Of a stretch of DNA of 64,000 bases, positions 19,903 to 20,242 are shown piece by piece. The translations under genes and the position numbers were made by a program. Below the pieces are notes generated by a model that worked only from the letters and a program-made list of their open reading frames with translations, was not told where the DNA came from and did not search any database. Source of the stretch: Halorarum halophilum (GTDB taxonomy: Archaea; Halobacteriota; Halobacteria; Halobacteriales; Haloferacaceae); the NCBI RefSeq assembly GCF_013401515.1, contig NZ_CP058529.1, positions 1,860,001 to 1,924,000 of the forward strand, in the 5' to 3' direction. The first letter of the stretch is position 1, and each line of letters begins with the position of its first letter.

Positions 19903-20040
19903 GTCCCCCGTTACGTCGTGCGGCCGAAAAGGGCAGAGCCTGCGTGTCAAGGTCTATGGGTGGATATCGGGTCCACGAGCATCGAGAGATCGCTCACCCG
20001 GAATCCTTCCGGAAGCACTCGGGGCCTTCGGCCCCACTCA

Positions 20041-20179
20041 TGCGAGGGAAGGGATTTGAACCATGGTCGGACGTGCTCGGCTCGCTTCGCTCGCCTATGC
20101 GCGACCTCCCTGGTTCGAATCCCTTCCTTCTCGATTTTATCGCTCCGCTCGAAAATCTGCGAGGGAAGGGATTTGAACC
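20041..20179. repeat. Duplicated tRNA-Leu 3' end (possible att scar)
   Basis: The 22-base sequence TGCGAGGGAAGGGATTTGAA plus CC occurs at 20041-20062 and again at 20158-20179, where it is the acceptor and T-arm end of tRNA-Leu. The copies are direct repeats 117 bases apart. A third, inverted and imperfect T-arm-like copy (GGTTCGAATCCCTTCC, 20112-20127) lies between them. This is the arrangement left by integrases that target tRNA 3' ends, but no integrase is present. The short frames here reading GKGFEP are artefacts of the T-arm sequence. Confidence 0.6.
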
Positions 20180-20242
20180 CTCGAACCCCTACGGGAGCGG
20201 ATCTTAAGTCCGCCGCTTTTGGCCTGGCTCAGCCACCCTCGC
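20159..20242 (-). tRNA. tRNA-Leu (anticodon UAA)
   Basis: An 84-base class II tRNA on the minus strand. The acceptor stem GCGAGGG pairs with CCCTCGC. The anticodon stem GCGGA/TCCGC holds loop CTTAAGA with anticodon TAA. There is a variable arm of about 13 bases (TCCCGTAGGGGTT region), and the T loop is TTCAAAT. No intron is seen and the CCA is not encoded. Confidence 0.95.

What the first reader, a model, noticed from the sequence alone, without database searches (positions are those of the whole stretch)
20041..20242. tRNA-Leu(UAA) 3' end duplicated 117 bases downstream
The 22-base 3' part of the tRNA gene recurs as a direct repeat downstream, and an inverted imperfect T-arm copy lies between. 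Integrative elements commonly leave such repeats at tRNA genes. No integrase is left, so the element may have excised, or this may be a minimal element or a decoy.
Basis: partly seen in the sequence, partly recalled or inferred. Interest (0 to 1): 0.5.

Follow-up and report, generated by a model that had tools for sequence, protein, structure and literature searches.

The report
tRNA-tail hairpin repeats in haloarchaea
Behind this tRNA gene sits one copy of a widespread but apparently unnamed family of roughly 100-base hairpin repeats that sit singly or in rows behind many different tRNA genes in salt-loving archaea, most copies carrying a duplicate of the local tRNA gene's tail.

Summary
In detail: the last 22 bases of tRNA-Leu(UAA) recur exactly 117 nt downstream, with an inverted T-arm copy between. 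It is neither an isolated scar nor chance but one member of a Halobacteria-wide repeat family. Each unit reads, in tRNA sense: spacer hairpin H, inverted T-arm, core hairpin, copy of the local tRNA 3' end. In this genome 8 of 44 chromosomal tRNA genes have such a tail copy downstream, 0 of 44 upstream. Of 92 model hits, 88 lie just downstream, same strand, of tRNAs for 14 amino acids. A core pattern found at 21 places in GTDB lies behind a tRNA gene or tRNA fragment in all 20 testable cases. Cores are shared between different tRNAs, units turn over (16 arrangements in 30 Halorubrum loci, rough typing), two cores are inverted, and a same-genus genome lacks the unit. Helix mismatches show no RNA-like G-U preference, unlike tRNA stems. 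Best reading: miniature, gene-less, tRNA-targeting mobile repeats acting as DNA hairpins; the enzyme is unknown. Integrase-bearing elements use the same tRNAs and displace such arrays.

The parts
20158..20242 (-). tRNA-Leu(UAA) gene, the target; its 3' end (G52 to N73) is 20158-20179
20133..20157 (-). H: spacer hairpin directly behind the tRNA (tRNA-sense GATTTTCGAGCGGAGCGATAAAATC)
   Evidence: sequence, fold; most other units also have a hairpin-like stretch of variable sequence here (by eye)
20112..20130 (-). inverted T-arm arm, complementary to the local tRNA tail and to the tail copy
   Evidence: arms fit the local tRNA better than permuted tails
20063..20111 (-). type-A core hairpin (tRNA-sense AGGGAGGTCGCGC...GTCCGACCAT)
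   Evidence: conserved in alignment A1; model R2, in whose training set it is, scores 81.4 bits here
20041..20062 (-). exact 22-nt copy of the tRNA-Leu 3' end
20016..20040 (-). hairpin directly after the tail copy, nearly the same as the H spacers of L049 unit 1 and L007 unit 2; probable remnant of a second unit
   Evidence: sequences; inference

Best explanation
The feature is one unit of a family of roughly 80-170 bp, gene-less, hairpin-forming mobile repeats of Halobacteria that sit, often in tandem, directly behind tRNA genes, with a duplicate of the target tRNA's 3' end (T-loop to discriminator base). Shown: the anatomy; the linkage to tRNA genes for 14 amino acids; local identity of tails and local fit of arms; near-identical cores behind different tRNAs; presence/absence and replacement at corresponding tRNAs of same-genus genomes; tandem duplication; two cores lying inverted between the inverted T-loops. 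Inferred: the units act as DNA hairpins and enter by recombination at the dyad-symmetric T-loop, probably served in trans by a tyrosine recombinase of the kind carried by tRNA-integrating elements; tandem copies then grow and shrink by recombination between tails; cores flip or are swapped by recombination at the T-loop palindromes. The enzyme has not been identified.
For: Family: 122 of 148 same-family genomes match the 100-nt unit (the query contains the 22-nt tail, so some matches are tRNA tails alone). Model R2 hits 22 of 24 Halobacteria in a phylum sample and 9 of 12 relatives; a 23rd of the 24 (G277) has a weak but visible unit. Linkage: 88 of 92 R2 hits within 700 nt downstream, same strand, of a tRNA gene, 0 nearest to an opposite-strand tRNA, 4 without an intact tRNA in the fetched region. 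GTDB pattern scan: 19 of 21 are 38-268 nt behind a tRNA, one follows a truncated tRNA, one has only 9 nt of room. Tail equals local tRNA in 72 of 88 (<=2 of 19 mismatches; mean 1.23 versus 6.37 permuted, 0 of 200); arm fits the local tRNA (9.41 versus 8.27, 0 of 1000). Cores at the same tRNA in different genomes are no more alike (0.584) than cores at different tRNAs (0.585); in G226 one 27-nt core is identical at Lys-TTT and Arg-CCG and one base off at Leu-TAG and Arg-TCT. Turnover: 16 arrangements in 30 Halorubrum loci; type-C unit in G000 and G001 versus type-A unit with another H in G002 at Lys-CTT; no unit in G002 at the window's tRNA. Inverted cores L217, L237. DNA rather than RNA pairing: G-T versus A-C mismatches 79:68 (P), 7:20 (core), 16:16 (H), against 82:8 in tRNA stems.
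Against: No recombinase or transposase is tied to the units; none was searched for genome-wide. No excised form or new insertion was seen. The same-genome similarity excess of cores is small (0.606 versus 0.585; 12 of 1000 permutations reach it). No match in IMG/VR for two exact core patterns, nor by blastn in phage or plasmid records. G007 has no unit in three searches. Inversions and tandem copies can arise without an enzyme, and the two inverted cores come from multi-contig assemblies. The G002 site is syntenic only on the downstream side and may hold an H remnant, so it may be a loss. The tRNA-sense strand folds better than its complement in most units, which an RNA role would also predict; for the window's own unit the complement folds slightly better as DNA. 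Units are related by descent and many tested ones were found through the model, so counts are not independent.
Confidence: 0.55

Rival explanations
1. Passive DNA dynamics only: inverted T-arm copies and tandem units arise and are corrected by replication template switching at the near-palindromic T-loop and by homologous recombination between tails; no dedicated enzyme.
For: Arms follow the local tRNA sequence, as quasi-palindrome correction would give; cores inverted between inverted repeats; near-identical tandem units behind own Lys-TTT; no enzyme found.
Against: Does not explain why the same core families recur behind tRNAs for 14 amino acids and across genera.
Confidence: 0.2
2. Functional RNA: the units are tRNA trailers (terminators, processing signals or small RNAs) kept for function.
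For: On the tRNA strand and directly downstream in 88 of 92 hits; the tRNA-sense strand folds better in 75 of 87 units with RNA and 77 of 87 with DNA parameters; 24-pair structure paired in 83.4% of cells, 0 of 500 shuffles as high. PMC7237163 (passages read) reports a hairpin that can terminate transcription in Haloferax volcanii.
Against: Only a minority of tRNA genes carry a tail copy (8 of 44 here); rapid turnover; helices show no G-U preference while tRNA stems do; an exact acceptor-strand copy has no obvious role in a trailer.
Confidence: 0.13
3. Decoy landing pads: tail copies are kept because they divert integrases from the tRNA gene.
For: Tails duplicate the T-loop-to-N73 region; [quoted passage not shown] tyrosine-recombinase elements sit at the same tRNAs.
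Against: In the five integrated elements examined the intact tRNA comes first and the displaced 3' fragment (four cases) or the orphan unit (one case) follows the element, so in these cases the element had entered at the tRNA gene and not at a unit.
Confidence: 0.07
4. Scar of one excised or decayed integrative element.
For: Tail duplication at a tRNA 3' end is the usual island footprint.
Against: The inter-tail sequence is a recurring structured unit at many tRNAs; no integrase seen in a limited look behind related tRNA-Leu genes.
Confidence: 0.05

Closest known systems
tRNA-integrating elements with tyrosine recombinases (archaeal islands and viruses)
   Same: Use of a tRNA gene 3' end, with the dyad-symmetric T stem loop as one known sublocation; direct repeat of the tRNA tail on both sides; tandem integration at one locus is reported (PMC8371274, passages read).
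   Different: Units are about 100 bp, hold no gene, share a conserved hairpin core and an inverted T-arm, and occur behind tRNAs for 14 amino acids.
Small mobile repeats, PATEs and MITEs of Haloquadratum
   Same: About 80-110 bp for SMRs, no transposase, terminal inverted repeats, mobilisation of SMRs unknown (PMC3119063, passages read).
   Different: SMR-As are reported to target IS605-type elements and PATEs and to make no target duplication; these units sit at tRNA 3' ends and carry a 19-22 nt duplicate of the target.
Integron attC cassettes / CALINs (features recalled)
   Same: Row of short units, each ending in an imperfect palindrome whose two ends are inverted core sites, with bulged bases and a variable terminal hairpin; sites join with a resident site.
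   Different: No genes in the units in this sample, no integron integrase looked for or found, arms are tRNA T-arms rather than the attC core sequence.
rtT repeats behind E. coli tyrT (recalled; a paper search returned no description)
   Same: Tandem repeats behind a tRNA gene that each include a copy of the tRNA 3' end.
   Different: One locus, about 178 bp and unrelated sequence (recalled); no Rfam family other than tRNA reached its gathering score here.
REP/RAYT and other palindromes (recalled)
   Same: Short non-autonomous DNA hairpins, many copies per genome, no gene inside.
   Different: Those are intergenic and not tied to tRNA genes; RAYT or TnpA genes were not searched for here.

Membership tests
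Integrated tRNA-targeting genomic element | Tail of the tRNA duplicated as direct repeats flanking the insert | tested here: met
Integrated tRNA-targeting genomic element | Carries an integrase gene | tested here: not met
   gaps between successive tail copies (<=3 of 19 mismatches, up to 2.9 kb downstream where held) never exceed 250 nt at 220 tRNA genes
Integrated tRNA-targeting genomic element | Precise empty site in relatives | tested here: inconclusive
   G002 lacks the unit with the downstream gene conserved, but the upstream gene was not found in that locus and a possible H remnant remains
MITE / SMR | Short, non-coding, multi-copy, palindromic | tested here: met
MITE / SMR | Terminal repeats matching a known transposon (MITE) | not tested
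   no transposon library was searched
MITE / SMR | Targets IS605 elements and makes no target duplication (SMR-A) | tested here: not met
   units sit at tRNA genes and carry a tail copy
Integron cassette array | Imperfect palindromic site with inverted ends and variable terminal structure | tested here: met
Integron cassette array | IntI-type integrase nearby | not tested
   no genome-wide search for it was made
Integron cassette array | Gene cassettes between sites | tested here: not met
Structured RNA family | Helices keep G-U but not A-C mismatches | tested here: not met
   with tRNA stems as positive control (counted at fixed positions, the units by hairpin alignment)
Structured RNA family | Stable transcript | not testable with these tools
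   no expression data held

The most novel reading that the evidence does not exclude
Halobacteria possess an integron-like cassette system whose attachment sites are tRNA T-loops: each unit is a miniature cassette consisting of little more than a folded single-stranded recombination site (inverted T-arm, bulge, G-A internal loop, variable terminal hairpin, T-arm), captured behind tRNA genes by a recombinase that recognises the hairpin strand, with the resident tRNA tail re-templated into every new copy.
Probability: 0.13. Interest if true: 0.88.

Novelty: new variant of a known kind. Interest (0 to 1): 0.62.

Why it matters
If units of this kind lie behind a good share of tRNA genes in most haloarchaeal genomes and turn over between species, then the ends of tRNA genes in a whole archaeal class are being continually rewritten by a short DNA element whose mover is unknown. 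It offers a testable case of a mobile repeat that acquires a target-specific tail and a matching arm at each site, may confuse island finders that look for duplicated tRNA tails, and gives a natural assay for T-loop recombination in archaea.

Tried and rejected
Known RNA family: only tRNA passed its Rfam gathering score; microRNA-like matches are below threshold and look like palindrome artefacts. Presence outside Halobacteria: 8 of 124 other genomes of the phylum sample had one weak hit each; the 3 of 8 inspected are ordinary tRNA genes. Gene-bearing cassettes: none. G-U test as support for RNA: went the other way. First covariance model R1 predicted only 9 pairs and was replaced by R2 with a hand-written structure, which may favour that structure. 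A1 holds 32 sequences that I picked from the 44 type-A units; 19 further units were skipped there by the type-A pattern. A first regular expression for inverted cores missed the two real cases; the second also returned many normal units read on the other strand, and only L217 and L237 are inverted relative to the tRNA (and by eye). Of 105 R2 hits I used 92, leaving out 9 reverse-strand shadows, 3 duplicates (L204-L206) and one match to the tRNA gene itself; one search used 91 of the 92 and one search used 87 (identical sequences or cores removed). The arrangement types come from simple patterns; some loci stay untyped in part and some second units were missed. In one search protein 3 was cut short because the printout was capped. 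Literature: ten searches in an open-access library found no description; subscription journals are not covered.

Full report
OBSERVATION. tRNA-Leu(UAA) lies at 20158-20242 on the minus strand. Its last 22 bases (G52 to N73) recur exactly at 20041-20062, 117 nt further on in the direction of transcription, and an inverted copy of the T-arm lies between. The finding is confirmed. Of the 70 Rfam tRNA hits in this genome, 44 are on the main contig and 26 on contig C4. In the fetched regions around the 44, ARAGORN tRNA genes (one doubtful): 8 have a copy of their own last 21 nt within 400 nt downstream at 2 mismatches or fewer, none has one upstream, and tails of other tRNAs match in 4 of 1834 comparisons. 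The eight are Met, Lys-TTT, Lys-CTT, Gly-TCC, a second Met-CAT gene, Tyr, Arg-TCT and Leu-TAA. Arg-CCG (6 mismatches) and Val-TAC (no clean tail) carry units by eye; both also match model R2.

ANATOMY. Read in tRNA sense, the units share one order: after N73 a spacer H of variable sequence, usually hairpin-like and often of the form C-GA-NC-GNNA-GN-GA-G; then an arm complementary to the T-loop and part of the acceptor strand; then a core hairpin; then GGTTCRAATCC through N73 of the local tRNA. Three core types recur: A (CAGGGAG ... CGACCGTGG, as here), B (AGTCGCAGC ... GGACCGTCTT) and C (GTAGACGAGACG ... CGTCTCGACGTGG); further variants occur. The inner stem varies in sequence and length while staying complementary. 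On 32 type-A units (A1), a 24-pair structure is formed in 83.4% of cells against 77.6 +/- 0.7% after shuffling (0 of 500) and at most 43.1% when slid; the structure was written by hand on this alignment, which favours it. Units are often tandem: two near-identical 121-nt units behind own Lys-TTT, three behind Leu in G085, four R2 hits behind Ser in G226.

DISTRIBUTION. The 100-nt unit matches 122 of 148 genomes of the same family; that query includes the tail, so some of these matches are to tRNA tails only. Model R2 hits 22 of 24 Halobacteria in a phylum sample (3-18 hits each; G007 and G277 had none) and 8 of 124 others, one weak hit each (the 24/124 split assumes that the 98 unlisted genomes without a match are, like the last ones listed, outside the order). 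In a second search with laxer filters 9 of 12 relatives have hits; G005, G007 and G036 have none. G277 proved to have a weak but visible unit behind tRNA-Phe; 3 of the 8 outside genomes were inspected and their hits are ordinary tRNA genes. A GTDB-wide scan for a 24-base pattern (arm T-loop plus core, no tail) found 21 places, all in records titled as Halobacteria. Nineteen lie 38-268 nt behind a tRNA gene on the same strand; one (L095) follows a truncated tRNA-His 3' end; one (L084) has only 9 nt of upstream sequence.

LINKAGE AND LOCAL MATCH. Of 92 R2 hits in 75 fetched regions, 88 lie within 700 nt downstream of a tRNA gene on the same strand, none has an opposite-strand tRNA as its nearest, and 4 have no intact tRNA in the region. 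The tRNAs, as ARAGORN names them, cover Leu, Met, Ser, Arg, Lys, His, Gly, Val, Glu, Asp, Trp, Pro, Ala and Phe. The unit's tail matches the local tRNA (mean 1.23 of 19 mismatches, 72 of 88 at 2 or fewer; 6.37 after permutation, 0 of 200), and the arm fits the local tail better than permuted tails (9.41 versus 8.27, 0 of 1000). Most regions were chosen from strong R2 hits, and some units are in R2's training set, so these are not random samples; the GTDB scan is the cleaner test.

MOVEMENT. Cores at the same tRNA in different genomes are no more alike (0.584) than cores at different tRNAs in different genomes (0.585); same-genome cores at different tRNAs are slightly more alike (0.606; 12 of 1000 permutations as high) (91 units). 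In G226 one 27-nt core is identical behind Lys-TTT and Arg-CCG and differs by one base behind Leu-TAG and Arg-TCT, each with its own tail. Within the window's genus, Lys-CTT carries a related type-C unit in G000 and G001 but a type-A unit with another H in G002. At the window's own tRNA, G002 has the same downstream gene (83% over 156 aa) and no unit, although the upstream gene was not found in that locus and the first bases behind its tRNA may be an H remnant; G001, with the same upstream gene (86%; ferredoxin-like by eye), also has no tail copy. Two Halorubrum units (L217, L237) carry the core in reverse between unreversed arm and tail, which implies recombination between the inverted T-loops in DNA unless both are assembly faults.

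DNA OR RNA. In a strand-symmetric hairpin alignment, isolated G-T and A-C mismatches (sense strand) are 79:68 in 112 P hairpins, 7:20 in 87 cores and 16:16 in 88 H spacers, whereas acceptor and T stems of 142 tRNA genes from the same loci, counted at fixed positions, give 82:8. RNA helices under selection should look like the tRNA stems. The tRNA-sense strand does fold better than its complement in most units, with RNA (75 of 87) and with DNA parameters (77 of 87); the RNA result survives a correction by mononucleotide shuffles (75 of 87). Purine-purine mismatches outnumber pyrimidine-pyrimidine ones (G-G and G-A 95 versus C-C and C-T 12), which I take as the cause. For the window's own unit the complement folds slightly better as DNA (-28.2 versus -25.5). 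I read the whole as a preference for one folded single strand, in DNA rather than RNA; an RNA role is not excluded.

REAL INTEGRATED ELEMENTS. Three of the four R2 hits without an intact tRNA (L155, L164, L187) follow a truncated tRNA 3' end, as do L057, L068 and probably L054. For L164, L187, L057, L068 and the fourth orphan unit (L165), fetching 20 kb showed the intact tRNA 6.1-9.4 kb upstream; for L155 and L054 no intact copy was found within the stretch. Tyrosine-recombinase genes lie in four of these five intervals (Pfam; proteins 1 and 3 fall just under the Phage_integrase cut-off, at 27.0 and 26.9 against 27.1 bits, but pass an N-terminal integrase domain; protein 3 was cut short by me). 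In the G001 element the N-terminal part lies in another frame, so that gene may be broken. In the fifth (G054) I saw no integrase in a partial look. So ordinary elements enter the same tRNA genes and the array ends up behind the displaced tRNA fragment; the arrays themselves hold no gene (largest gap between tails 250 nt at 220 tRNA genes). No unit was seen in the 330 nt behind the intact tRNA in the five cases (by eye).

MECHANISM. The facts fit a gene-less mobile repeat that duplicates the target tail on entry. The T stem loop is one of three known integration regions and has dyad symmetry (PMC8371274, passages read), so a tyrosine recombinase acting in trans at the T-loop is the likeliest mover; this step is inferred. 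How the arm comes to match each new tRNA is the least explained point: re-templating by hairpin-guided repair is my guess.

NOVELTY. Ten searches of the open-access library and the passages seen of PMC3119063, PMC5217627, PMC7237163, PMC8371274 and PMC9897764 held no description of such units. The nearest printed observation is a palindrome about 10 bp behind about half of the tRNA genes of Methanopyrus kandleri (PMC5217627), which is a different motif.

Noticed in passing
G000:C4:44000-62000 (locus L111), outside the window: A 149-kb secondary contig of this genome carries 26 Rfam (32 ARAGORN) tRNA genes within about 13 kb; none has a downstream tail copy at 2 mismatches or fewer. It resembles the tRNA clusters of large haloviruses (recalled) or a plasmid.
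   Followed up: no
L241 (G054), between the intact tRNA-Arg(TCG) and its truncated copy: An interval of about 8.3 kb carries 22 further ARAGORN tRNA genes, like the cluster on G000 C4.
   Followed up: partly
L041, L042, L043, L045, L046 (G000): The GCTCGCTTCGCTCGC-type hairpin of the core also occurs in this genome with no tRNA gene within the 3-kb locus; the tandem G-A hairpin may be a general haloarchaeal intergenic motif.
   Followed up: no
L055, L112, L072 and others, tail copies; L061, L036, L119, arms: Several tail copies or arms carry one extra base in the T-loop relative to the tRNA (by eye).
   Followed up: no
L165/L245 (G001): An orphan unit 9.4 kb behind tRNA-Val(CAC), next to an integrase gene that may be split by a frame change, has H and core but no tRNA fragment in front.
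   Followed up: partly
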